Below, one piece after another: positions 1,351 through 63,730 of a DNA stretch of 64,000 nt (positions within the stretch are counted from its first letter, which is position 1; every line of letters starts with the position of its first letter). Source of the stretch: Rhizophagus irregularis (Eukaryota > Glomeromycota > Glomeromycetes > Glomerales > Glomeraceae); NCBI RefSeq assembly GCF_026210795.1, contig NC_089429.1, positions 5,394,001 to 5,458,000 on the forward strand. The letters run 5' to 3'. The translations under genes and the position numbers were made by a program. Under the pieces are notes generated by a model, which was given only the letters and a program-made list of their open reading frames with translations, had not been told where the DNA came from and ran no database searches.

Positions 1351-1800
1351 ATTACTCTCTTACTTGATGGGCAAGTATCATTCCCGCTGCAACGCGACAG
1401 GTTACATCTAGTATATACTATTAAAATTTAATATTGACAATAGTATATAATCTATAATGTGATGAACAATAATTTTTAATGTTAAGTTTCGGAGAAATCC
1501 CCCTATTTATATAAAATTATGTATCACGTGTATGTGATATAATCCGCAGTTCGATCAACTAAATTTTTTTTAACCTTTTTTTTAACCTTTTTTTTTAACA
1601 TTTTTTTTTTAAACTTTTTTTTTGAACCTTTTTTTTCATTTTTCCCTTTTCTTTCATTCGCCCCTTCATTTCCCTTCATACCCTTCTTTTGTCTCTCCTT
1701 TATTCTTTCCTTTTCCTTCCCTTCTCTTTTCCCTTTACTTTTACATTTCCCATTTCTTTTTTTTCTTTTTTCCGACCTTTTGTTGAAAAATCTTACTAGC
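1351..1800. other. Intergenic, T-rich; no gene seen
   Basis: Contains a short tandem TTTTTTTAACC run at 1565-1640 followed by a pyrimidine-rich CCTTTTCTTTC stretch. Nothing gene-like is visible. Confidence 0.5.
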
Positions 1801-3420
1801 TATCTCTCCTTAGATGCGAACTTCGGTAAATTTGTCTTTTTTTTTAATTGTTTATTTTTTAACTAACGATTTCTAATAGTTGTTTTTCTTACTTTTTTTT
1901 AGACGATTTAGTTCTTCGGCTATTTTGACACGTGGGAATAAGGTGGAAATTTTTTTTTTTCTTAATTATCTATTTCAATGAAACGTTTTTAACATTTCAA
2001 CTTTTTTCTTTTTTTTTTAGGCAGTTCTTTCGGTCTTTTTAGACGCAAATCTCGGTAAGTTATTCAATTTTTTTTTTTAATTGTTTTGTTTTAACGAACA
2101 GATTCTAACAATTCGTTTACTTTCTTTTATCTAGGCGATTCTTTTAATTTTCTTTGGATATAGGATTCTGGTATGATATTTTTTGTTTTTTTTTTTGTTT
2201 TTTCTTTAATTATTTTATTTAATGAACTTTATTAATAGTTCGTTTTTCTTCTTTTAGAGTTGCCAATTCTCTTTGGAAATAGAAATGAGTGTCCATCTCT
2301 TGTGGAAATAGAGGTAGGTTTTTTTTTATAGTTTGTTGTTTTTTTTTGTTTTCGTCTTTGGTACTAAATTTTCTTCTTTTTAGGACTTATCTATCGGATA
2401 TGTGGGATTTTGGTGAGAAATCAGACAATATTTTTTAATGTTTCTTTATATTTTTTTAACGAACCGTTTTTTAATATTTTGGGGTTTCTTTTTTTTAGGT
2501 GACCGGATCTTAAAAGTATTGTATCAGAACTTTCTTTGAAATTATTCCTTTTAACGAAACATTTTACTAACGTTTTGATATTTCTCCTTTTTTTTAGGCA
2601 ACAGATCTTTGAAAAATGTTAATTTCAGTAAGTATTGAAACTTTTCTTTGAACTTATTCCTTTAACAAAACATTTTATTAACCTTTCAATATTCTCTTTT
2701 TTTTAGGTTGAGCGTGTCTTGGACACGTGAAGTTTTTTATAGGTAAACGAAATACAACAAATTGCCCGAATCTTTGAAAAAAATGGTTAGACCAAATATA
2801 TTTAATATATATGAATATTGAATTTTTTTTAGAAAAGAACAATTATTTATTTGATTTAAAAGATTTTTTTTAATTTATACTTTAATGAAACGTTTTACTA
2901 ACGTTCTCTTTTTTTTAGACGGCCAGTACCTGGGCGCGTATTGTTTCGGTAAGGGATTCCAAAATATATTTTATTAATTTAATTCTTTTAGTGAAACGTT
3001 TTACTAACATTTCAATTTTCTCTTTTTTTTTATATGCAGTCAAGTCCTTGGACGCGCAGAATTTTGGTAGGGGATTCTTTCTTTAACGAAACGCGGAATT
3101 GGTAAGTTTTTTCTCTGCTTTAGTTTATTTATTCTAACGAAATTTATTTTAACATTCCAAATTTTATTCTTTTTTTTGATAGGCCTGAACGTATGGATTT
3201 TGAAAAATTTCTTTTTTTAGACAGATTTAGAACGTGGATTTTGGTAGGAAGACGAATATGTTTTTTAATCTTTTTATTTAACGTTAACAAAATGTTTCTA
3301 ACATTTCGTTCTTTTCCTTTTTTTAGACGAGTGTGTTGGTTTTCAGATTTTGGCAAGTATTTTCTTTATCTTTAATTATATTAACGAACAGTTACTAATG
3401 TATAATTTCTTTAATAGCGT
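1800..3420 (+). repeat. Tandem ladder of about 12 micro-exon-like cassettes
   Basis: About twelve units of roughly 110-150 bp follow one another. Each has a T-run ending in AG (for example 2019-2020, 2133-2134, 2256-2257, 2382-2383, 2497-2498, 2596-2597, 2705-2706, 2917-2918, 3038-3039, 3219-3220, 3325-3326). Next comes a 22-56 nt non-T-rich segment, and then a donor-like GTAAGT/GTAGGT/GTAAGG (for example 2055, 2171, 2314, 2413, 2743, 2949, 3067, 3243; a GC donor near 3353). Between donor and next AG lies a recurrent TTAACGAAACG...TTACTAAC...TTTCAA block that looks like a branch-site region. The inserts share ends such as GATTTTG and GGACGCG. Either this is an expanded exon-intron array of an unknown gene or a repeat that mimics one. 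No long product can be read with confidence. Confidence 0.6.
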
Positions 3421-3721
3421 TTACATCAAAAAAAGATGAAGAATGGTGAAGAGAGGAGTATTTAAAGGAGGATAGAGGAAATGTATTTTACAATTAAAAT
3501 TACAGATGTATTTTTACAATAAAATTTACAATATATTTTACAATAATTTGTTACAATTTATATTAAATATACATATTAATAAATTAATATTACAATTAAT
3601 ATTATATAACTATTGTACGATGTCCCTACAAGACCAATAACGAGTATCTTAACATGGTTTGTATATAATGTACTGTAATATTAATTTTACAATACATTTA
3701 AAAAATTTTAAGTTGTTAGCA

Positions 3722-4255
3722 AAGAAATTACGCAAATACTAAATTGATGGTAAGAATTTCATTTATTGGTATTTTATTCAATGATAAAGGCTTTAAATAT
3801 TTATAATTTTCTTCTTTTTCTTTGTTTTATTAAAAAAAAAGAATGTAATCGTTGCCAAGGAACTAAGTCGTATTGTTCAAAACGAAAGTATGTATGATAA
3901 AAATATGAAGAAAAACTCATTTTTTACTAGCATGTACTATAACTTTTTTTATTATTATGTAGATATTAGAACGTATTCGCTTCATCCTGGTGTAATTAAT
4001 ACAAATATCAATCACATGAATAACAGATATACAACTTATTTTATAAATTTAGTAGTAATGATGTTTGAAATATCAGCTGAACAAGGTGCCATCAATACTC
4101 TTTATCCTGTACTTTCTCCCGAAAATAAAGAAACAGGAGAGTACTATAACGAAGGAATTAAACAGGAGCCAAGTAAAGTTGCAAATGATCAAGAAGTTGC
4201 AGATAAATTGTGGAAAGTTTCTGAACAATTATTAAGAGAACGTGGATTGATTTAA
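3722..4255 (+). pseudogene. SDR copy A, 5'-truncated
   Basis: Only the 3' part of the SDR gene family is present: the last nine codons of exon 4 (NYANTKLM, retaining the catalytic Y and K, ending 3749), exon 5 (3842-3887) and exon 6 (3963-4255, HPG motif and a stop after RERGLI). Splice sites are intact. Exons 1-3 and most of exon 4 are missing; sequence upstream of about 3722 is unrelated repeat. It is closest to copy B at 7020 (shared NNRYTTYFINL block). Whether it is transcribed from an outside promoter cannot be told. Confidence 0.85.
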
Positions 4256-4854
4256 ATATCAAGTTTTCTTTGTTTTCTTCTTGTATTACACAGTAACATT
4301 TTAAATAGATAAATATAAATATTGTATGTGTTTTTAAAGAATAGTATAAAAAATAAATTCTTTATTTGATAATATTAAAATTAATGAATATTTCATTATT
4401 CGCGTGTTATATATAATTTATATCAAATCATTAGTCGCGTGGAATGATCCTATATGTTCTATCGAATATTCTCAAAAAAAATTTTCGAGGTTTTTATTAT
4501 GAAAATCTCGGACATGTGATAATTTTAAAGTAGAGCCTTAATTCGTTACGTTTGAATAATACTTGAATAAACAAATTATAATTTACATTTTCGAATAAAT
4601 TAACTGAGTTTTATGTTCATGTTTAATAATAGACATCGATAAATAACTAAAAAAAATATGTTCAAGCTAATGGAAATTTTTTAACTTGGTTGATGAATTT
4701 GAAGCTGCCGATCAACTCTGCAATTTCATTTAATTATTTCTTTTGTTCAGGTGATAATGATGATGTAATATCGAATAGGTAAATACCAACTAACCCTTTC
4801 AACCATTTTAAATTTTTTTAAAAAATTTACTTATTGTACATTATCTATAATTAG
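4256..4854. other. Intergenic; no gene seen
   Basis: AT-rich spacer after SDR copy A with an AATAAA-type signal near 4350. No coding or repeat structure was recognised. A short T-rich tract before 4855 ends in TTAG, probably the acceptor of the kinase relic. Confidence 0.4.
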
Positions 4855-7019: not shown

Positions 7020-8413
7020 ATGCCAGTCAAATTAGATAATAATTACGATTTGTCAGGATACGTTATAATTCTTACTGGTGCGACTGATGGTAAATAAATT
7101 CAACTCCACTTAAAATAATTCAATCACTTTGCTTACATTTTATATTATTTATTAGGTATCGGTAAAGATATGGCAAGAATTTTAGCTGGATTTAATCCAA
7201 AACGATTGATTTTACCAGTTCGTAATAAAGAAAAAGGAAATATTTTATTAGAATATATTAAATCTTCTAATGGACATGCAAAGAATGTTGAAATTTGGGA
7301 AATGGATTTAGCAGATTTACAAAGTGTAAAAAACTTTGCTAATAAATTCATCAAAGAAGTTGGAGAATTACATATGTTATTAAATAATGCAGGTAATCTT
7401 CGGAGTCCCTTGCAACGGACTTATTGCCCAATACTTTCATGCTGGAGGGAGTAGACTACCTTCACCTACCAATTTTTCTGGAAGTAAGTTTCGAAGCGAA
7501 ACTTGGTTATTAATACTATTGCATTTTTTATCTGTATTTATCTATTCGACGTATCTTTCGCCGTAGGAGTAATGTCTAGCAATCAAGTTATTAAAACAAA
7601 GGATAACCTTGAAATACAATTTCAGGTAAATTTATTATTATTTTTTTATCTACAAATCGTTTGTATAGCATTCGCTTTATAACATTCATATATTATTATA
7701 GGTCAACCATTTAGCGCCATTTTTACTTACTTTATTGTTATTGGATACAATAAAAAAATCGGTTTCCGCTGAATTACCCGGAAAAATTGCATTTACTAGC
7801 TCATCTGGTCATTTCAATGGCGAGATTGACTTTGACAACTTAAATCTCGAAAAACGTTCTAGCTACTGGCATCCTATTAAAGGAAATTACGGAAATACTA
7901 AATTGATGGTAAGTATTTCATTTATTGGTATTTTATTCAATGATAAAGACTTAAATTTTTACGTTTTTCTTCTTTTCCTTTTTTTTTTAAAAAAAAGAAT
8001 GTTATTGTTGCCAAGGAACTAAGTCGTATTGTTCAAAACGAAAGTATGTATGACAAAAATATGAAGAAAACTCATTTTTTACTAGCATGCATGTACTGTA
8101 ACTTTTTTTTAATTATGTAGATATTAGAACGTATTCGCTTCATCCTGGTATAATTAGTACAAATTTAAACCACATGAATAACAGATATACAACTTATTTT
8201 ATAAATTTATTGATAATGATGTTTGAAATATCAGCTGAACAAGGTGCCATTAATACTCTTTATCCTGTACTTTCTCCCGAAAATAAAGAAACAGGAGAAT
8301 ACTATAACGAAGGAATTAAACAGGAGCCAAATAAAATTGCTAATGATCAAGAAGTTGCAAATAAATTGTGGAAAGTTTCTGAACAATTATTAAGAGAACA
8401 TGGGTTGATTTAA
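7020..8413 (+). CDS. SDR copy B: short-chain dehydrogenase/reductase, 303 aa
   Basis: Six exons: 7020-7089, 7156-7392, 7567-7625, 7702-7908, 7998-8043 and 8121-8413. Joined they give 303 residues, normal for a classical SDR. The Rossmann fold signature TGATDGIG is at residues 19-26. A basic ARN-type motif (here VRN) after the second strand suggests NADP(H). An acidic D74 follows the third strand, NNAG is at 100-103, the catalytic serine is in TSS (154-156), and Y185-x3-K189 is the catalytic pair, with HPG in exon 6. The family oxidises or reduces alcohol/ketone groups on small or lipid substrates; the substrate here is unknown. The nearest known groups are retinol-dehydrogenase/WWOX-like SDRs. 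No signal peptide is seen. Intron 2 (174 bp) is longer than in the other copies because of an inserted segment near 7400-7500. All introns are GT-AG and the start ATG follows an A-run. Confidence 0.9.
7395..7515 (+). repeat. Insert within intron 2 of SDR copy B
   Basis: Compared with the same intron in copies C-I, copy B holds about 100 extra bp with a base composition richer in G+C (blocks CTTCGGAGTCCC, GCTGGAGGGAGTAG, CTTCACCTACC, GTTTCGAAGCGAAACTTGG). The inner TTCGAAGCGAA part is a small palindrome. It is probably a fragment of a dispersed repeat; no terminal repeats or target duplication could be defined. Confidence 0.45.
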
Positions 8414-9088
8414 ATACCAAGTTTGCTTTTTTCTTTGTAACAATTTTTTTGTACACACAGTAAATATAAGTTAACTTCAGTTATTATAAATAGTATATAC
8501 CAGTATGTGTTTTTAAAGAATAATATAAAATAAATCCTTTATCCAATATTACTGTATTTACGACTTACAACATTTTACTACGGTAAACGGAATTAAATTA
8601 TTTACGACATACTGTATTACTGTATGTACTCATTATACTGTAAATGATATAATTAGGGAATTTCGGTGGCACCTATACCGAGATGAGAGCTCTTGAAAAA
8701 TAAAGAAACGCGAAAATAGTGTAATGAAAGACTCAAATAAAGTTGTATTAAATATTTGCGTAGATAATAGTTACACAAGCACATGCAAGTGACACTCGGG
8801 ACATTCGGCAATACTCGGTAAAATTCAGAGTCAGACTAAGATAAAAATTATATCGTTAAATTCGGAGCACTGATCCGAGTATATGCCGAGTTACTTTCGG
8901 CAAGTGATTAAAGTGTCACCCGTATCTTATGAAAACAGCAGTAATGAAAATGTGAAATGATGTACAACCGAGTTTCTTTTATTATCCTTATTACGCGCTG
9001 CGGATATGAACAGTCAATTTATCTATTTAAAGCTCAAAATTCTCACTTGAAGTTCTAAACTGTCGACTCCAAAAAAAAAAAAAAAAAA
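8414..9088 (+). repeat. Upstream segment of SDR copy C, shared with copies D and E
   Basis: From about 8545 (ACTGTATTTACGACTTACAA) to the start codon, the sequence is collinear with 18370-19026 and, apart from two MITE insertions, with 28320-29752. It includes CACCTATACCGAGATGAGAG, GACACTCGG and GATCCGAGTATATG blocks. The similarity shows that the upstream region was duplicated together with the gene. Copy C has lost part of the TTGAATCTGA segment present in D and E. Confidence 0.8.
9024..9038 (+). promoter_or_regulatory. TATA-like core promoter of SDR copy C
   Basis: TATTTAAAGCTCAAA, about 65 bp before the ATG. The same TA-rich box plus GCTCAAA appears at a matching position in copies D, E, F and H, so it is probably the core promoter of the family. 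Confidence 0.6.
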
Positions 9089-10390
9089 ATGCCAGTTAAA
9101 TTAGAAATTCAAGATTTGTCGAAATATGTTATAATACTTACTGGTGCAACTGATGGTAAAATATTTTTTTTCAAAATTAAAATTTTTCTTAGTATGATAA
9201 TAATTCTTTTTATTTAATTTTAAGGCATCGGTAAAGAAATGGCGAGGATTTTAGCCAAATCTAATCCCAAGCGATTGATTTTACCGGCTCGTAATATAGA
9301 AAAAGGAAATAAGTTATTAGAATATATTAAATCTTCTAATGGGAATGCAAACAATGTTGAAATTTGGGAAATGGATCTAGCAGATTTACAAAGTGTAAAA
9401 AACTTTGCTAATAAATTCATTAAAGAAGTTGGAGAATTACATATTTTAATTAATAATGCAGGTAAAAAAAAAAAATGAAAATAAAAATAGCGACTTATTA
9501 ATCACGTTTCACGTTTATATATTTACTTATTTGAAATATTTTGTAGGAATAGTCGTTCAGAATCAAATAATTAAAACGAAGGATAACCTGGAATTACAAT
9601 TTCAGGTAATTAATTTACTACCTTTTTTTTTCAAGTCGTTTATTTTTGATATTCGCTTATTAACTTTTATACATTATTCAGGTCAATCATTTAGCACAAT
9701 TTTTACTTACTTTATTGTTATTGGATACAATAAAAAAATCGGTTTCTGCTGAATTACCTGGAAAAATTGCATTAACTAGTTCAGAAGCAAATCAGTTTGG
9801 AGAAATTGATTTTGATAATTTAAACCTTGAAAAAGGTAATTACTGGAATCCTATTAAATCCTATGGAAATACGAAATTGATGGTAATTATTTAAATCAAA
9901 TTTCATTTTTAATAGTTTTAAATCTTATTAAAAAAATTTTATTATTTTTGATTTTTGATTTTTTTTTAAAAAAGAAAGTTATTGTTGCCAAGGAATTAGG
10001 CCGTTTAGTTCAAAACGATAGTAAGTATTATAAAAAAAAAAAATTTTTTTACAGCATGAAAGAAAAATGTTTTAACTCTTTTCTTTTAAACATGTAGATA
10101 TTACAACATATTCGCTTCATCCTGGTATGATTAGTACAAATATAAACCACATGAATAACAGATATACAACTTATTTAGTAAATTTATTAGCAATGGTGTT
10201 TGGAATAACAGCTGAACAAGGTGCCATCAATACTCTCTATCCCGTATTTTCTCTCGAAAATAAAGAAACGGGAAAATATTATAATGAAGGTATTGAAAAG
10301 GAACCAAATAAAGTTGCTAATGATCAAGAAGTTGCAAAGAAACTATGGGATGTTTCTGAAAAAATATTAAAAGATCATGGAATGATCTAG
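9089..10390 (+). CDS. SDR copy C: short-chain dehydrogenase/reductase, 300 aa (mosaic)
   Basis: Exons 9089-9155, 9225-9461, 9547-9605, 9682-9882, 9975-10020 and 10098-10390 join to 300 residues with all SDR motifs intact (TGATDGIG, NNAG, TSS, YGNTK, HPG). Exon 5 begins AAA GTT, giving KVIVA where the other copies have NVIVA. The copy is a mosaic. Exons 1-3 and the last 55 residues match copies D/E. Exon 4 (SSEANQFGE...NYWNPIKSYG) matches copy F. The segment after HPG (HMNNRYTTYLVNLL) matches copies A/B. This suggests gene conversion or unequal crossing-over in the array. Function is as for copy B. Confidence 0.9.
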
Positions 10391-11665: not shown

Positions 11666-12429
11666 GCGGTGTAATGCCGTAGTATACATAGTGAATTTAT
11701 TAATTGTAAGGCGCAGCATTATATTTAGAATTAGTGTATAAATTTTTAGTAGTTTAAAATTGTATATCAATGGTCCGAAATGACGTTAAACTATATAATA
11801 GAGAACTATAAGTTATCAGGTGATTACGTCCGAGATGACGTTATTTTTATTTTTATTTTTAAAATCCACGTTCCGAGATGACGTTAAAGTCGTTAAACTA
11901 GTAGATCATTTTTAAAGAATTATATCAAGTGATTAAGGTTATCAGGTGATTCAAATTTGAAGATCATTTTAGAAGAAATCTATAATTAGGAAATTTACAT
12001 TTTTGGAAGTGGATTTGAAGGTCAAAAACGAAGAAAAATTCAAAATTTCAAAAACATGATAAACGCTAAGTATTGAAGTGTGCGGTTCGTTTGGGCATAA
12101 AATTAAAATTTTTGGTTTTGCCACAAAACATAGTGATGAAAGGCGCAAGAAGTTTCTTTAAGAAAGTATTTTTAGATTTATATAAAAAGGGGTAAATATT
12201 GACTTTGTGGAAATTCAGGATACGAATTTGGGGATTTATTTAGATAAATCACCCCATTCGGGTGATCATCAAAGGTTATAACCTTACGATTTATGTCACA
12301 AATGCATAGGTTATAACCTTATATGGGCGGCCCATGGGCCATAATTTAATGTCACGTGACCCGATTTTTTAATTCTGGCCCAACATGCGCAATTTTGGCA
12401 TGTTAATTTTGGAACACGTTACATGCGCT

Positions 12430-13140
12430 AATTACTGTACATGTTACCCAAATGTAACATGCGGTGATTCAGACGCATGTTATTCATCCGTAACATGCGA
12501 TAAATTGGGCGCATGTTACCCATCTGTAACATGCAGTGATTCAGACACATGTTACGGATGGGTAATATGCGTTAATTCTGGCGCATGTTACTCATTTATA
12601 ACATGCACTAATTTGGGCGCATGTTACGCTTCTGTAACATGCGTTAATTCTGGCGCATGTTACTCATCCATAATATGCATTAATTCTGGCGCATGTTACT
12701 CATCTGTAACATGCGTTAATTCTGGTGCATGTTACGCTTCTGTAACATGCATTAATTCTGACGCATGTTACTCAATCGTAATATGCGTTAATTCCTGTGC
12801 ATTTTCGTTCTTAACGTCAATTAATTAGGTACATTACGCTTCGTAAGTACGTTAATTCTGGCGCTATTCTTTCATCCGTAACATGCGTTAATTCTGCATG
12901 CGCTGTACTCGTCAAGTTAGCATGTGTTAATTCTGGTGCATGTTACGCTTCTGTAACATGCGTTAATTCTGGCGCATGTTACTCATCCGTAATATGCGTT
13001 AATTCTGGCGCATGTTACTCATCCGTAATATGCGTTAATTCTGGCGCATGTTACTCATCCGTAACATGCGCTAATTTGGGTACATGTTACTGGCGCATGT
13101 TCCCTACAGTAACATGCAGTAACTCTAGTTCATATTCCTT
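12430..13140. repeat. 36-bp minisatellite, left arm of foldback
   Basis: The unit is GCATGTTAC + 6 nt + GTAACATGC + GTTAATTCTGGC, so each unit contains its own 9-bp inverted pair around a 6-nt loop. About 18-19 units occur, with a disturbed stretch near 12790-12910. Because 36 is divisible by 3 and the unit lacks stops, a false 12-residue repeat protein (CYSSVTCVNSGA) can be read. Confidence 0.85.
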
Positions 13141-14019
13141 ACTGTAACATACAGTGATTTTAGTACATATTTTTATATCCAAAATACCAAATATTTAATA
13201 CTGAGTATTACCAAAATCAATGCATATTATATTATAGAATATTGCATATTATGCATTAGAAATAGTATATATAACTTTATTAAAGATGGCCATTTTTTTA
13301 AAATCAAAAAAATAATAAAACAATAAAAATAACAAAAAAAATAAACAAAAAAAAAATAAATAAACAAAAAAAAAATAAACAACAAAAAAAAAAATAAACA
13401 ACAAAAAAAAAAATAAACAAAAAAAAAAAATAAACAACAAAAAAAAAAATAAACAACAAAAAAAAAATAAACAAAATAAAATAAAAATAACAAAAAACAA
13501 ATGATTTGCATAGTATATTTTAAAATTTATAAGTAATTAATTTTATGATCATGTAAATCACTTTACTGATGCAAATATAATAATCATTTGTTTTTTCTTA
13601 TTTCTATATATTTAATTTTTTCCTTTTTATTTTTTATTTTTTTTTATTTTTTTTTTGTTAATTTTATTTTTTTTTGTTAATTTTTTTTTTGTTAATTTTA
13701 TTTTTTTTTATAAATTTTATTTTTTTTTATAATTTTATTTGCTAGTTTTATTTATTTTTTTTTGTTTATTTTTTTTTTGTTTATTTTTTTTTTTTTGTTA
13801 TTTTTTTTTTTGTTTATTTTTTTTTTTGTTATTTTTATTGTTTTATTATTTTTTTGATTTTAAAAAAATGACCATCTTTAATAAAGTTATATATATTTCT
13901 AATGCATAATATGCAATATTCTATAATATAATATGCATTGATTTTGGTAATACTCAGTATTAAATATTTGGTATTTTGGATATAAAAATATGTACTAAAA
14001 TCACTGTATGTTACAGTAA

Positions 14020-14760
14020 GGAATATGAACTAGAGTTACTGCATGTTACTGTAGGGAACATGCGCCAGTAACATGTACCCAAATTAGCGCATGTTACAGA
14101 TGAGTAATATGCGCCAGAATTAACGCATATTACGGATAAGTAACATGCGCCAGAATTAACGCATATTACGGATGAGTAACATGCGCCAGAATTAACGCAT
14201 GTTACAGAAGCGTAACATGCACCAGAATTAATGCATGTTACGGATGAGTAACATGCGCCAGAATTAACGCATATTCCGGATGAGTAACATGCGCCAGAAT
14301 TAACGCATGTTACAGAAGCGTAACATGCACTAGAATTAACGCATGTTATGGATGAGTAACATGCGCCAGAATTAACGCATATTATGGATGAGTAACATGC
14401 GTCAGAATTAATGCATGTTACAGAAGCGTAACATGCACCAGAATTAATGCATGTTACGGATGAGTAATATGCGCCAGAATTAACGCATATTACGGATGAG
14501 TAACATGCGCCAGAATTAACGCATGTTACAGAAGTGTAACATACATCAGAATTAATGCATGTTACGGATGAGTAACATGCGCCAGAATTAATGCATGTTA
14601 CAGAAGCGTAACATGCGCCCAAATTAGCGCATGTTATGAATGAGTAACATGCGCCAGAATTAACGCATATTACCCATCCGTAACATGCGTCTGAATCACT
14701 GCATGTTACAGATGGGTAACATGCGCCCAATTTATCGCATGTTACGGATGAATAACATGT
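14020..14760. repeat. 36-bp minisatellite, right arm of foldback
   Basis: Mirror image of the left-arm array, about 20 units, more regular than the left copy. Unit variants (TCATCC versus GCTTCT in the loop; TTAATTCTGG versus TAATTTGGG) alternate in the same order in both arms, so the arms were copied or corrected as blocks. The 288-residue frame on the - strand is an artefact of the repeat. Confidence 0.8.
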
Positions 14761-14768
14761 GTCTGAAT

Positions 14769-17751
14769 TAGTGGTCCGATCTGTGGATATGAAATCCGGA
14801 TATCTGTACAGATATGTGGATATCCGGATATAAATTTTAAGTAACGGATAGAAAATTACGGATATACAGATATCCATGGATATCTGTGCAGATATCTGTT
14901 ATGCATGTTAATTTTGTATAACGGTTGATCAAAAAACGCGAATTCGCGTAATAAAATGTGATATTGACTAAAAAAGTGTTACTTTATAGATTTTTAGTCT
15001 AGCCTTTTTATGACAATGTCCAGTGAAAATTTAGCAGAGATTCCGCAGCCAGAAAATTTTGAAACCTTGACTCCTAGAACAAGTGGATCAAAAAGACCAA
15101 GGCAAAGGGTACGTGAACCATTAAACCAGCAAAATTTAGATCAAAATGAACCTATAGTTGAGTTAGAATCAGATACAGACATAAATGACCAGCAAAAAAC
15201 TGGTAGAAATAATGTAAAACGAAAAAAAACTTCAATAAAAATAGACTTAAATAAAATAGCTGACCAACTAGTTTTAATTCCAAATGCCAAGCCACCAGGA
15301 CAAAGTTGGATATGGGGTTACTTTGATCAATATGAACCAATTGAACAATATAAAAGGATTGTAAAATGTTTAGTTCAAGTTCAACGGAAAAATGGTGTAG
15401 AATCGTGTGGTCATTTTATGGGTTCTGATAATTCTACTGGCAATTTTATTGTTCATCTTGCTTCACATCGAATTACTGAGGAAAGTCATAAAAGAAGGAT
15501 GGGCGAGATACAAAAAAATAATCAGTTATCACAAACCCGCATAGATGAAATTATTCGAAATAATCCAGATGTCAAAAACTGCCGGGACAGAAAATTTGTT
15601 GGAATTTTAATTAAAGACAATAGACCAATTAGTATATGTAATGATGAAGGTTTAATTGAATTTATTCGCGAATTTGATTCAAATTATCAAATTCCAAGTG
15701 ATAAAATAATTCACCAACTATTAGCCGAAGCATACAATCAAATCAAAGTTGTTTTAGTAAAAAAATTTAATGAAGAAATTATTTCTTGCTCCATAACAAC
15801 AGACTTATGGACTGCACGAAGTAGAAGCGGATACATTGGTGTTACATGTTCCTTTGTTAACAATAATTTTGATATTTGTGAAGCAATCTTAGCAGTTCAA
15901 TACGTACCTTATCCTCATACTGGTGATAATATTTGTGAAGTACTACATGATATTATTTCAAATTGGAATCTTACTGGTAAGATCTTTACAATGACGACAG
16001 ATAATGGTTCTAATATGGTAAAAGCTGGAAGATTAATGAATGAGCTTACAAGACTTCCTTGTACAGCGCACACATTGCAACTAGTTGTGGGGAAGGGATT
16101 ATTGCCAGCTGAAGTTTTAATTGCACGAGCCAAAAGATTAATAAATTTTTTTACTTCACCCAAACAAACGGAAAAATTACTGGAAATTCAGAAAAGAACT
16201 AACCATATCAATAATAACGAAGTAATTAACAAAATTTTATTTTTTAAAAAAAAATTCTATTTTTCAAAGAAATATATTAACTAATTAATTTACTAATATT
16301 TTTATGCTACATTTTCATTACAGAATTTAGAAAAAAATGATGAATACCTTCGAATGATTGCTGATGTAGACACGCGATGGAACTCCAGTTACCTTGCATG
16401 GAAACGTTTAATAAAAATCAAAGATCTCATTGATATTCTGGCATCTACTATGTTAATTGATCCTGATCTCTCAACACGACGTGATGGGAAGCGACTGAAA
16501 AATATAAATCTAACAGAAAATGAATGGCAAGAAATAAGTAAATTAATCATAATCTTGGAAGATTTTGCTGGAGCAACTGAATATTTGGGCGGAAGTAAAT
16601 ACGCAACTATTAGTTTAATGTATAGCGTTTTAGCAATGATTAAACAAAAGATTTTACCAGATAATGATTCCAATGTGGAGGACATAGACTTAACCAATTC
16701 GGATACAGCCTTTGATGATGATGTTGGTTATGAAGATGCTCCAGAAGATGAATCTATTTCTGAACAACCTAAACGGAGAAAAATTAATATTAATACGCCA
16801 CAAAATTGCACTGATCTTGAAAAACGTGTTAAAGCAGCACTTTACCGATCAATGAATCATTATTGGGAAGTTCCACAAGAGCAAGGGATGTTGGCTGCTT
16901 TACTGGATCCAAGATTCAAAGAACTTAGATTTGCCTCTAATTCATTGCGTATTAGAACCCAAGAACAATTGAAAAGTGCTTACCAAGAAATGAAAAATTT
17001 AACTAGTAATGAAGATCAAGAATCTGAATTACAGCCAGTGTCTTGTTAGCAAGGATGTTTCAAAATGATGCTATTAGCATTGACGAAGTAGCTAATTATT
17101 TAGCTCTCCCCAAGATTCATCATGATGATTGTCCTTTAACATGGTGGAGAATTAATAAGACTAGGTTTCCAGTGCTGTCAAAATTAGCAAGAAAATATTT
17201 GGCCATCCCTGCTACCTCTACTCCGAGTGAAAGGCTTTTTAGCGAAGCTGGTAATGTAATGACTATAAAAAGGACACAATTGGCGCCAAATATGTTAGAA
17301 AATTTGGTGTTTTGTAAGAAGAATTGGCGTCTAGCTGGAGGAGTTTTTCCATTAAAATATTAGTTGATAGTGAATAATTGAATAATGTAACAAGAAGCGA
17401 ACAATCTAATTGTTTCGTTTCGTTTTTTGCTTTTTGGGCGTAATTGAGAAATAAACTAACCGGATTTAGCTAATTTTCTTGCATCATTATCAAAAGAAAA
17501 GTGGCTTAGAAAAAATTTTTTTTATTGTAATAAAATAAACTATGCAAGTTTAAAATAAATTTAATAAAATTTTATCCGTTTTCTTATATTATTATCCGGA
17601 TAAATCTGCATCCGGATTATCTGTTAATTAAATTTATCTGCGCAGATTTACCCGGATTTAACCGGATTTTTTACGGGTAACAATCCGTATCTGTAATAGG
17701 GTCCGCGGATTATCTGTACGCGGATAAATGGATATCCGGATCTGACCACTA
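14769..17751 (+). mobile_element. hAT DNA transposon, 2983 bp, inserted in the foldback right arm
   Basis: Terminal inverted repeats TAGTGGTCCGATC (left) and GATCTGACCACTA (right) match at 12 of 13 positions. The target duplication GTCTGAAT occurs at 14761-14768 and 17752-17759, the 8 bp expected for hAT. The intact left arm shows the corresponding empty sequence. Subterminal regions (14780-14900; 17580-17745) are full of ATCCGGATAT, ATATCTGTACAG and GCGGATAAAT repeats, as is usual for transposase-binding sites. It carries one transposase gene. Both ends are complete, so it is recent, although the transposase may be mildly damaged. Confidence 0.93.
15010..17363 (+). CDS. hAT transposase (BED zinc finger, hATC dimerisation domain)
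   Basis: Exon 1 is 15010-16221 (404 codons; an alternative ATG is at 15016), with an intron 16222-16323 (GTAATT...ACAG) and exon 2 from 16324. A BED-type finger lies at residues about 100-155 (W100, C120, C133, H149, H153). The RNase-H-like core shows TTDLWTA (D265) and TTDNGSNM (D331), followed by the LPCTAH block and, in exon 2, VDTRWNSSY. The C-terminal hATC block reads IPATSTPSERLFSEAG near 17205-17255. Near 17030-17050 the frame changes: one frame ends in a stop at 17049 and the hATC frame continues. A 29-nt GT-AG segment at 17006-17034 would restore the frame if spliced, but that is very short for an intron; a frameshift is the simpler reading. The enzyme would excise and insert the element in the nucleus. 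Confidence 0.85.
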
Positions 17752-23115: not shown

Positions 23116-24838
23116 CGAGTTGGACAAAATTATCAGACATTGTGTAGTAAAAAATCAAGCATGGCTGGACAAAATGTCACCCCGTGTCTGACATTTTACC
23201 TGTTTATGCTTGTCCCGTGCTTGATATTTATCTGTACGTGCTTGATGTTTTGTCTGTACATGATGCTTCTGTTCGTGCTTGGTAATTTTATCTGTCCGTG
23301 CTTGAGGTTTTATCTAACTGTACTTGATGTTTTTGTCCAACTGTATTTGATTTTTGTCAAAAATGTCAGCACAGGGATATTTTGTCAATCACATGTTTTT
23401 TAAGTTTAGCATAGTTTTTACACGAAGATTTTTTTTTTATTGGCTTTTTTTTTATAAAACAATTTTTGTAGAGAATTTTTATTTTTAGATAATATAGGCA
23501 AAGGCTTTTTTTGATAAAATTCTTTTGGAATTTTTTTTAATAAAAAGACTTTTTTTTGATAAAAAATTCTGTTAGAGAATTTTTTTATTGATATTTGATA
23601 GGGACATTTCTGGGTTTTTTTTTCGATGGATAATTTCGTTAAAAAATTTAAATTTCATTGGAGAATTTTTCTTTTAATAAGATTTTTTTGTTTGACATAT
23701 ACTTAATTTGTTGGAACAATTTTTTTAATAGAAGAGACTTTTTTTTTGATAGAGAATTCATTGAGAATTATTTTTTTTTGTAGAAAAATCTTTGGAGAAT
23801 TTTTTTAATAGGAAAGATTTTTTTTGATGAAAATAATTTTCAGAAATTTTTTTAACAAATGAGATTTTTTTTTGATAGAAAATTTCGTTAAGAATTTTTT
23901 TTTAATAGGAGGGAGTTTTCCTTGATAAAGAATTTCTTTTGGGAATTTTTTTAATAGGTGAAAGTATTTTTTGACGAAGAATTTTATTGGAGAATTTTTT
24001 TTTAATAGGGGGATTATTTTTGATAGAGGATTTTATTAAAGAATTTTTCTTTAATAGGAAGATAAATAATTTCGCTGAGAATTTTTTTTTGATAGAAATT
24101 TCATCATAGAATTTTTGTAAAGAATTTTTTTTTTAATAGGAGGGAAGTTTTTTTTTTAATAGAAATTCTTTTGAGAATTTTTTTTAATAGGTAAGAATCT
24201 TTGAATTTTTTTTAATAGGGAAATGTGTTTTTTGATGGAAGATTTTCGTTAGAAATTTTTCTTAATCGGGGATATTTTTTTTGATTGAGAATTTCATTAG
24301 AGAATATTTTTTTGATGGAGAATTTTGTTTAGAAATCTTAATAGAAAATTTTATTGAAAATAGTTTTTTTTTAATAAGTGTATCCAGAATTTTGGCTTGA
24401 AATTTTTTTTTAATAAAGAATTTCATATAGAGATCATTTTTTTTTTATAAAAAATTGATTGAAAAATTTATTAAATTTTACAATTTTAATAATTTTTTTT
24501 TTTTTTTTTGTTTTATTTGTTTCGTTTTAACAATTTCAGGTTTCTTGGAATTTATTTTTATTTATCTTATAATTTTCTTTAGTTTGGTATTTTTTGATTC
24601 CATTTTTAACTTAATTTTAATATTTTTTAAAAATATTTTTTTAATTTCATAAACAAATTTCTTATTATATAATCATATAATATTCATATATAACATAAAT
24701 TAAAAAGTTTTTAAAATAATGTTAGCTTTAAAAAAAGTATATAGCAGAAATTTGTTTGAAGTGTTTTTTCTTTTTATCATTAATAATATTAAACAATTGG
24801 CATAAAACATTTTTTGAAAGGTTTTTACTTCAAAATTC

Positions 24839-25019: not shown

Positions 25020-25820
25020 TGCTAAATGTCGCCTGGGAGATCATCGCCTGGGTTTTTTTTTTCAAATATGTCATATGATGTATCTAATTTTTGATCGGTT
25101 AATTATTGCAAAAGATATTTTTTTTGCAAACATACTGTATTTATTTATCGCAGTTTTCAGAATTCTGTGTACGTTGTGATGATTGAGTGATTATGATTGC
25201 AGGACGATTACAGGACGATTACAGGACAACATTGTCCGATTTTTGTCTGGTAATTGTCCTGTAATCTAATAATTTTTTTATTAGATAATCTATAGGGGTA
25301 GCACAATTTTGAAAAGTGCGATAAAATAATCTTATTTAATGAAATTTTATTTGCAAATATTAAAATTTAAGTCACGCATTTACGATTTTAAAGAAAAAAA
25401 TCACCATATTTATTTTTATTGAAGTGTACAAATAAAAGAAACAATAACAATAAATAAAAAAGATAAGTAAATTACAATGATCAAGGAGAAAGATGCTAAT
25501 AAAAAAATAAAATAACAATGGAGTAATGGAAAGTAATAGAAGATGAAAGGGAGTAAAAAAGAGTGATAGGAAACAAAAGGAGAAATAGGACATGATAAGA
25601 GATGAAAAGGAGTGATGAGAGACGAAAAGAAGTGATGGGAGACGAAGAGGAGTGATGGGAGATAAAAAGAAGTGATGGAGACGAAGAGGAGGAATAGGAG
25701 ATGAAAAGGAGTGATGGGAGAGTGATGGGAGATAAAAAGAAGTGATGGGAAGAAGAGGAGGAGTGATGGGAGATGAAAAGGAGTGATGGGAGATGAAAAG
25801 AAGATGAAGAGGATATTAAA
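25020..25820 (+). repeat. Dispersed repeat, copy 2
   Basis: Same block order as 700-1350: CGCCTGGG, CAAATATGTCATATGATGTA, GCAAATATTAAAATTTAAG, ACAATGATCAAGGAGAAAG, then the GATGGGAGACGAAGAGGAG purine ladder. It carries an extra ACAGGACGATTACAGGACA stretch near 25200-25260. The serine-rich frames on the - strand derive from the ladder. Confidence 0.7.
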
Positions 25821-26948
25821 ATTGTAAAATTGAATAAAAATTTTCCAATCAATTTTTTATAAAAAAAAGATCTCTAATGAAATACTTTATTAAAAAAAGA
25901 ATATCAAGCCAAAATTCTCGATACACTTATTAAAAAAAACTATTTTCAATAAAATTTTCTATTAAGATTTCTAAACAAAATTCTCCATCAAAATTTTTCA
26001 ACAAACAATTCTCTAATGAAATTCTCAATCAAAAAAAATATCCCCGATTAAAGAAAAATTTCTAACGAAAATCTTCCATCAAAAAACACATTTCCCTATT
26101 AAAAAAAATTCAAAAATTCTTACCACCTATTAAAAAGAATTCTCAAAAGAATTTCTATATCAAAAAAAAAACTCCTCTTCTATTAAAAAAAAAAATCTTT
26201 ACCGAAATTCTCTATCAAAAAAAAAAATCTCCTCTGTTAAAAAAATTTACACTAACGAAATGAACTATCAAAAAAAAAAAAATCTTAAAATCTTACCTAT
26301 TAAATAAAAATTCTTTAATGAAATTCTCTATCAAAAACAATCTCCCTATTAAAAAAAAATTCTCTAATAAAATTCTCCGTCAAAAAATACTTTCATCTAT
26401 TAAAAAATTCTTAACGAAATTCTCTATCAAAAAAAAATCTCACTTGTTAAAAAAATTTTCTAACGAGATTATCTATCAAAAAAAAATCTTCCCTATTAAA
26501 AAAATTCTTCAAATAATTTTCTACAAAAAAAAAATTCTCAATGAATTCTCTATCAAAAAAAAAAGTCTCTCCTATTAAAAAAAAAATTGTTCCAACAAAT
26601 TAAGTATATGTCAAAAAAAAAAAATCTTATTAAAAAAAATTCTCCAATGAAATTTCTATCAAATAAAAGTTTTTGACGAAATTATCCATCAAAAAAAAAA
26701 CTTTGTAAAATTTAAAAAAAAAAATTTTTTTTTAAAACTACGCTAAAAAATGTGATCGACAAAATATCAACCCTGTGCTGACAAAGAAACTAATTCAAGC
26801 ACGTACAGAAATATCAAGCACAGACAGTCAGGCACGGTGTAACATTTTGTCAACCAACTCGGCTTGCCAACCCATCATAGGGTACACCACAATTTCCCGA
26901 CAGACGATTTCCCGACAGGACATTTTCCCGACAACTTTGACCAGCATT

Positions 26949-29162: not shown

Positions 29163-29171
29163 GCGTAATGC

Positions 29172-29335
29172 AAATAAAGTTAGTTGTATTTGAATCTGAC
29201 AAATATTAAATTATTATTGCGTATTGAGATAAAGTTAGTTGCATTTGAATCTGACAAATATTAAATTATTGCGTATTGTAGATAAAGTTAGTTGCATTTG
29301 AATCTTACAAATATTAAATTATTGCGTATTGTAGA
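29172..29335 (+). repeat. 55-bp tandem repeat, three copies, promoter of copy E
   Basis: The unit AAAGTTAGTTG(T/C)ATTTGAATC...ACAAATATTAAATTATTGCGTATTG occurs three times. Copy D has one and copy C a deleted version, so the number varies between paralogous promoters. Confidence 0.8.
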
Positions 29336-29693
29336 TAATAGTTTCACAAGTAAGATTATGACAATCTTGACAACCATTTACAGGACACAAAATCACATGC
29401 CAAGAGACACTCGGCAATACCCGATAAATTCAGAGTCTGAGAGACTAAGGTAAAAATTATATCGTTAAATTCGGAGCACTGATCCGAGTATCTGGTTTTT
29501 ATTTCATTCTAACCTCTGCCGAGTTTTACCGAGTTACTTTCGGCAAGTGATAAAAGTGTCTCCCGTAACTTATAAAAACAGCAGTAATGTGAAAATGATG
29601 TACAACCGAGTTTCTTTTATTATCCTAATTTATCCTTATTACGCGGTATGATATACATTCTGCGGATCAGCGAATATGAACAGACAATTTATC

Positions 29694-36425: not shown

Positions 36426-36890
36426 TAGTTTTTTTCATTTTTTATTACTAATACATATGTCATTGCGTACATAATAATTACTTTTTTAAGAAATAAACTT
36501 TTAGTAAATATCAACACAACAGCGCCAACCATACTATTTTTTGCCAAGACTACGGTTAATTAATTTTCCATTTTATTATTGTACCAACTAGCTGAAACCA
36601 CACCTTAAGTCCTTAATCCTAATTCTGTAATTGTGGTCACATGTTCCCAAACTTAAAGTTTCAATACCGAAATAACAATATTAATTGAATATGTTTAACA
36701 ATTAATTAATCAAAAATAGGTTCACTTTGTCGAAAATTTAACTGGTTAAGTCCATTATTCAATGTTACACTTATCCGAATTTTTCCTCAATGACACTGTA
36801 TTAGACTTAATTAAAAACTCTACTTAAAATAAGCTCGAAATTCTCGAGGAGAAAAAAAAAAAAAATTTCTTTAATTTGTAAATTTCAAAA
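36426..36890. other. Upstream region of copy G
   Basis: No gene seen. A weak version of the family promoter (ACTTAAAATAAGCTCGAAAT, about 36821) sits about 70 bp before the ATG. The TATA core is degenerate, so copy G may be weakly expressed or use another site. Confidence 0.4.
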
Positions 36891-38180
36891 ATGCCAGTTA
36901 AATTGGATAAACTCGATTTATCAAAATACGTTATAATCCTTACCGGCTCAACCGATGGTAAATATTTTTTCTCAAAATTAATTATACTTAATAAAATATT
37001 AATTCTTTTATTCTTCTTATTATAAGGCATTGGTAAGGAAATGGCAAGAATTTTAGCCGGATTTAATCCCAAGCGATTGGTTTTACCAGCTCGTAACAAA
37101 GAAAAAGCAAACAATTTATTAGAATATATTAAATCTTCTAATGAACATGTAAATAATGTTGAAATTTGGGAAATGGATTTGGCCGATTTACAAAGTGTAA
37201 AAGATTTTGCTAATAAATTCATCAAGGAAGTTGGAGAATTACATATTTTAATTAATAATGCAGGTAAATAAAAAAGAAAAATAAAATTGAAAAATAAAAA
37301 AAAAGAAGAGCTTTTTTTAACCACGTTTTTTGAACATCTTTTAGGTGTAGGCTTACAAGGTCAAGTCATTAAAACGAAGGATAACTTGGAAATACAATTT
37401 CAGGTAATTAATTTTTTTTTTTTCAATTTTGTTTGTATATTATTCACTTTTTTTAACATTTGCACATTATTTAGGTCAATCATTTGGCACAATTTTTACT
37501 CGCTTTATTGTTATTGGATACGATGAAAAAATCAGTTTCTGCCGAATTACCTGGAAAAATTGCATTACTTAGTTCAAATGTTCATAAAGTTGGCGAAATT
37601 GATTTCGATAATTTAAATCTTGAAAAAGGCGCCTACTGGAATCCTCTTAAATCTTATGGGAATACTAAATTGATGGTATGTATATTAAAGTATATTAAAG
37701 TCTGTTTTTTTTATTAAAGAATCTTTGGTTATTTATATACTTTTATTTCTATTAATAAAACAAGAATGTTATTATTGCCAAAGAATTAAGTCGTTTGGTT
37801 CAAAACGAAAGTAAGTATTAAACTTATTTTTGTCGGCATGTAAGAAAATCATTTTTAATTCTTTTTCTTTTAAATATATAGATATTACAACATATTCGAT
37901 TCACCCTGGGATAATTCAAACAAATATTGGTCACTTGAATGGCGCCTTCGCGAACTTTCTAGCTAAAATTTTTATAAAATTATCTGGATCTGAAATATCA
38001 GCCGAACAAGGTGCCACCAACGTTCTTTATCCTATATTTTCTCTCGAAAATAAAGGAACAGGAAAATATTACAATGAAGGAATAGAAGAGGAGCCAAATA
38101 CAATTGCAAATGATCAAGAAATTGCAAAGAAACTATGGGATGTTTCTAAACAAATATTGAAGGATCATGAAATGATTTAA
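36891..38180 (+). CDS. SDR copy G: short-chain dehydrogenase/reductase, 302 aa
   Basis: Exons 36891-36957, 37027-37263, 37345-37403, 37475-37675, 37765-37810 and 37882-38180 give 302 residues. Coenzyme motif TGSTDGIG (S in place of A), NNAG, LSS with the catalytic serine, YGNTK and HPG are present. Intron donors are GTAAAT, GTAATT and GTATGT. The post-HPG segment is HLNGAFANFLAKIFIKL, followed by GSEISAEQGATNVLYP. The end is KDHEMI. It is among the more diverged copies at the nucleotide level. Confidence 0.92.
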
Positions 38181-63599: not shown

Positions 63600-63730
63600 T
63601 TACACAAAAAAAAAATCCGGATTATATCCGGATTGACCCGGATTTTGAATCCGGATCAGATAATCCGGATTATATCCGGATTGACCCGGATTTTGAATCC
63701 GGATCAGATAATCCGGATAGAAACCGGAAA
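63600..63730. repeat. 45-48-bp tandem repeat rich in ATCCGGAT
   Basis: Two complete units of ATCCGGATTATATCCGGATT...GACCCGG...TTTTGAATCCGGATCAGATA plus a partial third. Each contains several ATCCGGAT/AATCCGG palindromes. Frames on both strands are repeat artefacts (NPDYIRIDPDFESGSD). Similar CCGGAT motifs occur in the hAT ends and near 46560-46740. Confidence 0.8.

What the first reader, a model, noticed from the sequence alone, without database searches (positions are those of the whole stretch)
1800..3420. Tandem ladder of about 12 micro-exon-like cassettes with conserved donor, branch-like and acceptor signals
Each 110-150-bp unit repeats the same order: T-run + AG acceptor, a 22-56-nt non-T segment, a GTAAG/GTAGG donor, then a TTAACGAAACGTTTTACTAAC-type block with a branch-like CTAAC. 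Splice-like signals are better conserved than the short inserts, which share GACGCG and GATTTTG pieces but differ otherwise. That is the reverse of a plain satellite. It could be a gene built from serially duplicated micro-exons (an exon-shuffling or diversity cassette), or a repeat whose ends mimic introns. This is the least explained structure in the window.
Basis: partly seen in the sequence, partly recalled or inferred. Interest (0 to 1): 0.75.

Follow-up and report, generated by a model that had tools for sequence, protein, structure and literature searches.

The report
Tandem array of intron-separated micro-exons
A 1.6-kb stretch of a eukaryotic, probably fungal, genome holds about 13 diverged head-to-tail copies of a short exon-like piece plus an intron-like piece; the splicing signals are well kept but no protein can be read across the pieces, so it looks like a worn or non-coding micro-exon gene, though a satellite that imitates introns is not excluded.

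Summary
Window 1800-3418 (+) has 13 tandem units (91-144 bp, one of 212): T-run plus AG, an exon-like segment (26-61 nt in the 12 units with a donor), a GT/GC donor, and an intron-like block with an AACGAAACGTTTTACTAAC-type branch region. An ordered branch/AG/donor scan gives 10 hits (8 of 13 units) against 0.65 in shuffles.

A control tempers this: two other T-run arrays score 2 and 3 hits in 592 and 619 bp. That is a similar density per kb but fewer per repeat copy, and they have few YTAAC sites (1 and 2, against 18 in the ladder).

Donor columns resemble a 5' splice site. Intron lengths match ten introns inferred by eye in neighbouring genes. Exons are mutually related (z 5.4 without the last 6 nt), but less than the branch block (z 11.1). 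Tandem exon-intron duplication fits best.

Coding is not supported: full inclusion gives 68 aa (shuffle mean 66.5); free skipping 128 (shuffle mean 107; 12% reach it); two spliced readings have no Pfam match.

Best reading: a spliced, or formerly spliced, array, now decayed or non-coding. No RNA reads or genome were available.

The parts
1800..1825 (+). exon-like segment 1 (weak acceptor; holds ATG at 1814; donor GTAAAT)
1826..1902 (+). intron-like block 1 (TAAC/TAAT branch, T-run, AG)
1903..1942 (+). exon-like segment 2, donor GTGGAA
1943..2020 (+). intron-like block 2
2021..2054 (+). exon-like segment 3 (alternative acceptor at 2025), donor GTAAGT
2055..2134 (+). intron-like block 3, best profile match (E 6.5e-9)
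2135..2170 (+). exon-like segment 4, donor GTATGA
2171..2257 (+). intron-like block 4
2258..2313 (+). exon-like segment 5 (56 nt, looks internally doubled), donor GTAGGT
   Evidence: (by eye)
2314..2383 (+). intron-like block 5, most diverged; the one block of 13 not found by the profile
2384..2412 (+). exon-like segment 6, donor GTGAGA
2413..2498 (+). intron-like block 6
2499..2597 (+). unit 7: acceptor and branch block kept, homologous donor missing (only GTATTG at 2516)
   Evidence: intron 86% identical to unit 8 over 72 columns
2598..2627 (+). exon-like segment 8, donor GTAAGT
2628..2706 (+). intron-like block 8
2707..2742 (+). exon-like segment 9, donor GTAAAC
2743..2918 (+). intron-like block 9 (176 nt, extra sequence at its 5' side)
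2919..2948 (+). exon-like segment 10, donor GTAAGG
2949..3039 (+). intron-like block 10
3040..3066 (+). exon-like segment 11, donor GTAGGG
3067..3182 (+). intron-like block 11, holding a partial second exon/donor copy near 3080-3110
   Evidence: (by eye)
3183..3243 (+). exon-like segment 12 (61 nt; looks like two exon copies with a shrunken intron between; alternative acceptors 3221, 3225), donor GTAGGA
3244..3326 (+). intron-like block 12
3327..3352 (+). exon-like segment 13, GC donor GCAAGT
3353..3417 (+). intron-like block 13, weakest of the 12 profile matches (E 0.0025)
3418..3470 (+). possible last exon, stops in all three frames

Best explanation
A tandem array of about 13 diverged exon-intron cassettes on the + strand. 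One short exon plus one intron of ordinary length for this region was copied head to tail, probably by unequal exchange in the T-rich, mutually similar introns (inferred). The transcript is, or was, spliced by the ordinary spliceosome at the T-run AG and GT/GC sites (inferred from the signals; not shown). The exons drifted faster than the branch-point block and share no reading frame now, so the locus is most likely a decayed micro-exon gene or a spliced non-coding transcript.
For: Ordered branch/AG/donor units: 10 hits (8 of 13 units) against 0.65 in shuffles. Intron blocks share descent: 12 of 13 found by profile, best match outside the array E 1.5. Exons are related too: z 5.4 without their last 6 nt, 0 of 300 shuffles reaching it (12 units). 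Donor information: 2.00 bits at +1, 1.59 at +2 and -1, 1.35 at +3, 0.72 at +4, 1.19 at +5, 0.22 at +6; the one departure at +2 is a GC donor (12 sites). YTAAY within 45 nt of AG in 12 of 13 units; YTAAC 18 times in the ladder, 1 and 2 times in the two control T-run arrays, i.e. 11 against 1.7 and 3.2 per kb. Lengths 65-176 against 66-174 in 10 neighbouring introns. Exon-like G+C 39%, intron-like 21%. No coding signal.
Against: No transcript evidence. The control T-run arrays give 2 and 3 composite hits, a similar density per kb. The donor sites were picked partly for having GT/GC, and exon columns -6 to -4 are as informative (1.18, 1.18, 0.96 bits) as some donor columns, so shared descent explains part of that profile. 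Exon and intron distances agree weakly (r 0.13, p 0.12 with the intron 3' end; r 0.21, p 0.03 with its 5' end). Only 2 of 10 neighbouring introns have the branch motif, so the ladder's strong motif is not typical here. Unit 7 lacks its donor, and units 5, 11 and 12 look rearranged.
Confidence: 0.6

Rival explanations
1. A diverged satellite of T-rich repeats whose edges happen to look like introns; never spliced.
For: This sequence has other T-run arrays (23739-24330 and, inverted, 25951-26569), and they reach 3.4 and 4.8 composite hits per kb on their T-run strand against 6.2 in the ladder (4.9 by distinct unit). Donor-type words GTRAG/GTAGG/GCAAG: 1, 3 and 9, i.e. 1.7, 4.8 and 5.6 per kb.
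Against: Per repeat copy the ladder has far more hits: 8 of 13 units, against 5 in roughly 25 copies of the 49-bp unit (copy number estimated as length divided by 49). YTAAC is 11 per kb against 1.7 and 3.2. Donors sit at homologous places in 12 of 13 units, and the one departure at +2 is the tolerated GC type. Exon-like parts have nearly double the G+C of intron-like parts.
Confidence: 0.18
2. A working protein gene built of micro-exons, with exon skipping choosing in-frame combinations (a diversity or secreted-protein gene).
For: With free skipping a 128-aa open path exists. The longest ATG-to-stop path is 110 aa and starts at the ATG in exon 1 with a hydrophobic beginning. Exons 9-14 are open together. 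Exon G+C 39% is above six neighbouring dehydrogenase exon stretches, 29.5%.
Against: None of these beats shuffled exons clearly: 68 aa without skipping (38% of 300 reach it), 128 aa with skipping (12%); 110 aa from ATG with skipping (14.5% of 400), 32 aa without (73%). Only 5 of 12 exons are multiples of three, 7 of 12 with alternative acceptors. Two spliced readings have no Pfam match up to E 1.
Confidence: 0.15
3. Introner-like elements: one mobile intron inserted many times into a single exon.
For: Introns resemble each other far more than exons do, and exon-intron congruence is weak.
Against: The exons are themselves homologous outside the splice-site edge (z 5.3-5.4), and the joined exons give no open frame beyond chance. 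No copy elsewhere in the window below E 1.5.
Confidence: 0.07

Closest known systems
Tandem exon duplication (general mechanism)
   Same: Homologous exons and introns head to tail, in splice-signal order.
   Different: As I recall it, exons are normally kept and introns drift, and the frame is kept; here the intron branch block is the best kept part and no common frame is seen.
Schistosome micro-exon genes (MEGs)
   Same: A run of very short exons; fast exon change.
   Different: MEGs are mostly very small symmetrical exons with a signal peptide (passages of PMC4350168), with introns up to 5 kb (abstract start of PMC10526429 in a listing). Here 5 of 12 exons are symmetrical in length, introns are short and no protein is seen.
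Fungal introner-like elements (ILEs)
   Same: Introns that are copies of one another, with splice signals.
   Different: [quoted passage not shown] Here the copies seen are in one array, diverged, with related exons; the rest of the genome could not be searched.
SP7-like repeat effectors of arbuscular mycorrhizal fungi
   Same: Possibly the same fungal group (lineage recalled, not tested); tandem repeat design.
   Different: They have a signal peptide, hydrophilic imperfect repeats in the protein and a conserved intron before the first repeat (passages of PMC11333574). No in-frame repeat is seen here.

Membership tests
Tandem exon-intron duplication array | exons homologous to each other beyond splice-site edges | tested here: met
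   12 of 13 units (unit 7 left out): z 5.4 without last 6 nt, 0 of 300 shuffles
Tandem exon-intron duplication array | introns homologous to each other | tested here: met
   12 of 13 blocks found by a profile built from all 13; z 11.1 on 12 units
Tandem exon-intron duplication array | exon and intron histories agree | tested here: inconclusive
   Mantel r 0.13 (p 0.12) and 0.21 (p 0.03)
Tandem exon-intron duplication array | sites used by the spliceosome | not testable with these tools
   no RNA reads available
Micro-exon gene (MEG type) | mostly symmetrical exons (multiples of three) | tested here: not met
   5 of 12, or 7 of 12 with alternative acceptors
Micro-exon gene (MEG type) | open reading frame through the exons | tested here: not met
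   68 aa, shuffle mean 66.5; 32 aa from ATG, shuffle mean 43
Micro-exon gene (MEG type) | signal peptide | not tested
   no supported first coding exon
[quoted passage not shown]
   no genome held; none elsewhere in the window below E 1.5
Introner-like element | flanking exons unrelated to each other | tested here: not met
   exons related
SP7-like effector | in-frame amino-acid repeats | tested here: not met
   frames of homologous exons differ and several hold stops; the SP7 sequences themselves were not compared
Non-spliced T-run satellite | splice-like words no commoner than in other T-run arrays of the genome | tested here: inconclusive
   composite hits per kb similar (3.4, 4.8 against 6.2, or 4.9 by unit), YTAAC much commoner in the ladder

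The most novel reading that the evidence does not exclude
A probably fungal gene that makes many short isoforms by skipping among 13 tandem micro-exons, with introns kept alike by exchange at the branch block while the exons diversify.
Probability: 0.1. Interest if true: 0.75.

Novelty: new variant of a known kind. Interest (0 to 1): 0.4.

Why it matters
If spliced, it would in my judgement be an unusually dense micro-exon array for a fungus (not surveyed here), showing exon cassettes multiplying while the splicing signals, not the exons, stay the conserved part. That gives a natural series for asking which intron signals a low-G+C eukaryotic spliceosome needs and how micro-exon genes are born or decay.

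Tried and rejected
Rfam on the whole window: 0 matches at gathering score. RNA fold of 12 of the 13 branch blocks (unit 5's left out): no consensus pair predicted, so the block is not explained as a hairpin. CpG decay as the cause of exon change: CpG is not depleted in exons (observed/expected 1.36, window 1.24). Codon-position bias in exon differences: 1, 4, 1 for exons 1 and 3 alone, but 13, 10, 10 for exons 8, 10, 11 and 67, 93, 83 over 11 exons; no consistent excess. Copies elsewhere: two patterns, each in viral contigs and genome contigs, 0 matches each; phage records in distant mode, no match. These collections are viral and prokaryotic, so the absence says little. A mobile-element boundary: comparing 1-1800 with 3401-4300 gave one 48-column 81% direct AT-rich match (1413-1455 with 3567-3613), otherwise weak matches; not pursued. 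Literature: searches (15 of 18 papers listed; 0 papers; 1; 9; 3; 0; 3); none of the listed titles and abstract starts described such an array. I read passages only of three papers (PMC11333574, PMC4350168, PMC4457414). In one search several intron ends were off by one or two bases; one search uses the corrected ends. In some searches the nulls shuffle single bases within each exon; 'full inclusion' leaves unit 7 optional. In one search unit 7 was given an arbitrary exon end (2526). In some searches unit 7 was left out, and its exon counts as intron in the G+C figure.

Full report
What is there. The stretch 1800-3418 on the + strand holds 13 head-to-tail units, each a T-run with AG, a short exon-like segment, a GT or GC donor (12 of 13 units), and an intron-like block, 12 of 13 with a YTAAY word within 45 nt of the AG. 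Tandem Repeats Finder does not report the array as such, presumably because the copies are too diverged. A profile built from the 60 bases before each of the 13 acceptors finds 12 of the 13 blocks with E from 6.5e-9 to 2.5e-3; the next match, E 0.98, is a partial copy inside unit 11, and the best outside the array is E 1.5, on both strands of 64 kb. The blocks match by construction; the point is that nothing else does. The block TTAACGAAACGTTTTACTAAC with up to 3 mismatches occurs 4 times, all in the array.

Is it more than chance. A scan for the ordered set (branch motif, pyrimidine-rich AG, donor 10-65 nt further) gives 10 hits in the array. Two acceptor pairs (2021/2025 and 2258/2260) count twice, so these are 8 distinct units of 13. 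The mean in 500 dinucleotide shuffles of the stretch is 0.65, with a maximum of 5. The densest other 1750-nt stretch has 3 hits on + and 4 on -.

A control against the reading. The window's other T-run arrays are shorter than 1750 nt, so I looked at them by themselves. The array at 23739-24330 (+) gives 2 hits in 592 bp and the inverted one at 25951-26569 (-) gives 3 in 619 bp: 3.4 and 4.8 per kb, against 6.2 in the ladder, or 4.9 by distinct unit. Donor-type words are 1.7 and 4.8 per kb against 5.6. YTAAC is 1.7 and 3.2 per kb against 11.1. So the loose scan hardly separates the ladder from T-run arrays by density. What separates it is the branch word, the homologous place of donors in 12 of 13 units, and the share of copies hit (8 of 13 units, against 5 in roughly 25 copies of 49 bp, my estimate from length).

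Does it look like splicing. Aligned at the exon ends, the 12 donors give 2.00 bits at +1, 1.59 at +2 and -1, 1.35 at +3, 0.72 at +4, 1.19 at +5 and 0.22 at +6. The only departure at +2 is a GC donor followed by AAGT. The sites were chosen partly for having GT or GC, and exon columns -6 to -4 are also conserved (1.18, 1.18, 0.96 bits), so shared descent explains part of the profile. Ten introns in two neighbouring short-chain dehydrogenase genes, inferred by eye from comparing the paralogues, serve as a yardstick: lengths agree (65-176 against 66-174), but YTAAY is in only 2 of 10 of them against 12 of 13.

How it arose. Exon segments are related to each other beyond their splice-site edge (z 5.4 without the last 6 nt, 0 of 300 shuffles), but the branch block is more alike (z 11.1) (12 units). 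Mean pairwise z is 0.68 for exons and 3.69 for intron 3' ends (13 units). Both parts being homologous points to tandem duplication of exon plus intron. The agreement of exon and intron distances is weak (r 0.13, p 0.12; r 0.21, p 0.03), so exchange or conversion within introns, or partly separate histories, remain possible. Units 5, 11 and 12 look like fusions, by eye.

Is it a protein gene. With all exons included (unit 7 optional) the longest open stretch is 68 aa, against a mean of 66.5 in 300 sets of shuffled exons (38% reach it). With free exon skipping it is 128 aa against 107 (12% reach it). From ATG to stop it is 110 aa with skipping (14.5% of 400 reach it) and 32 aa without (73%). Five of 12 exons are multiples of three, seven with alternative acceptors. 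Neither of two spliced readings matches a Pfam family up to E 1. Differences between exons do not consistently concentrate at one codon position. In one frame, exons 1, 3 and 11 read alike (LDAN or LDAQN), which hints at an old coding repeat but was not tested further. So a working coding gene is possible but unsupported.

Where it is. The window has 27.5% G+C, a short-chain dehydrogenase cluster (adh_short E 2e-13 on one exon), a gene with a sub-threshold DUF659 match (18.8 bits, cut-off 34.7) and an FAD-binding oxidase. No genome is held for it. I take it to be a fungus of the Rhizophagus kind from recall of such genomes; no call shows this. Directly downstream lies a 3' fragment of a dehydrogenase gene (3721-4279, 92% identical to 7879-8435), with no sign of belonging to the array.

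Verdict. The likeliest state is a worn or non-coding micro-exon array. The kind (tandem exon duplication) is known; what is unusual is the density and that the introns, not the exons, are the better conserved part.

Noticed in passing
3721-4279 and 7879-8435: Truncated 3' copy of a short-chain dehydrogenase gene, 92% identical to the full gene downstream; part of a tandem cluster with another copy at about 9090-10390. A further relative probably lies on the + strand near 36824-37360, seen as the same antisense ORF.
   Followed up: partly
12421-13091 and 14067-14770: Two arrays of a 36-bp unit in opposite orientation (by eye from the consensus), each readable as a 12-aa repeat (ORFs 12373-12828 + and 14011-14898 -), with A- and T-rich arrays between them, just before a gene with a weak DUF659 match (hAT-type, label recalled).
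   Followed up: no
23739-24330 and 25951-26569: T-run arrays of about 49 bp in inverted orientation; they give 2 and 3 loose splice-signal hits but few YTAAC words.
   Followed up: partly
1117-1329 and 25599-25800: Near-identical roughly 20-bp minisatellite consensus (TGATGGGAGACGAAAAGGAG type) at two distant places, with a similar scrap by eye near 3432-3480.
   Followed up: no
29163-29343 and 63614-63718: A 53-bp unit in 3.4 copies (92% matches) and a 48-bp unit in 2.2 identical copies.
   Followed up: no
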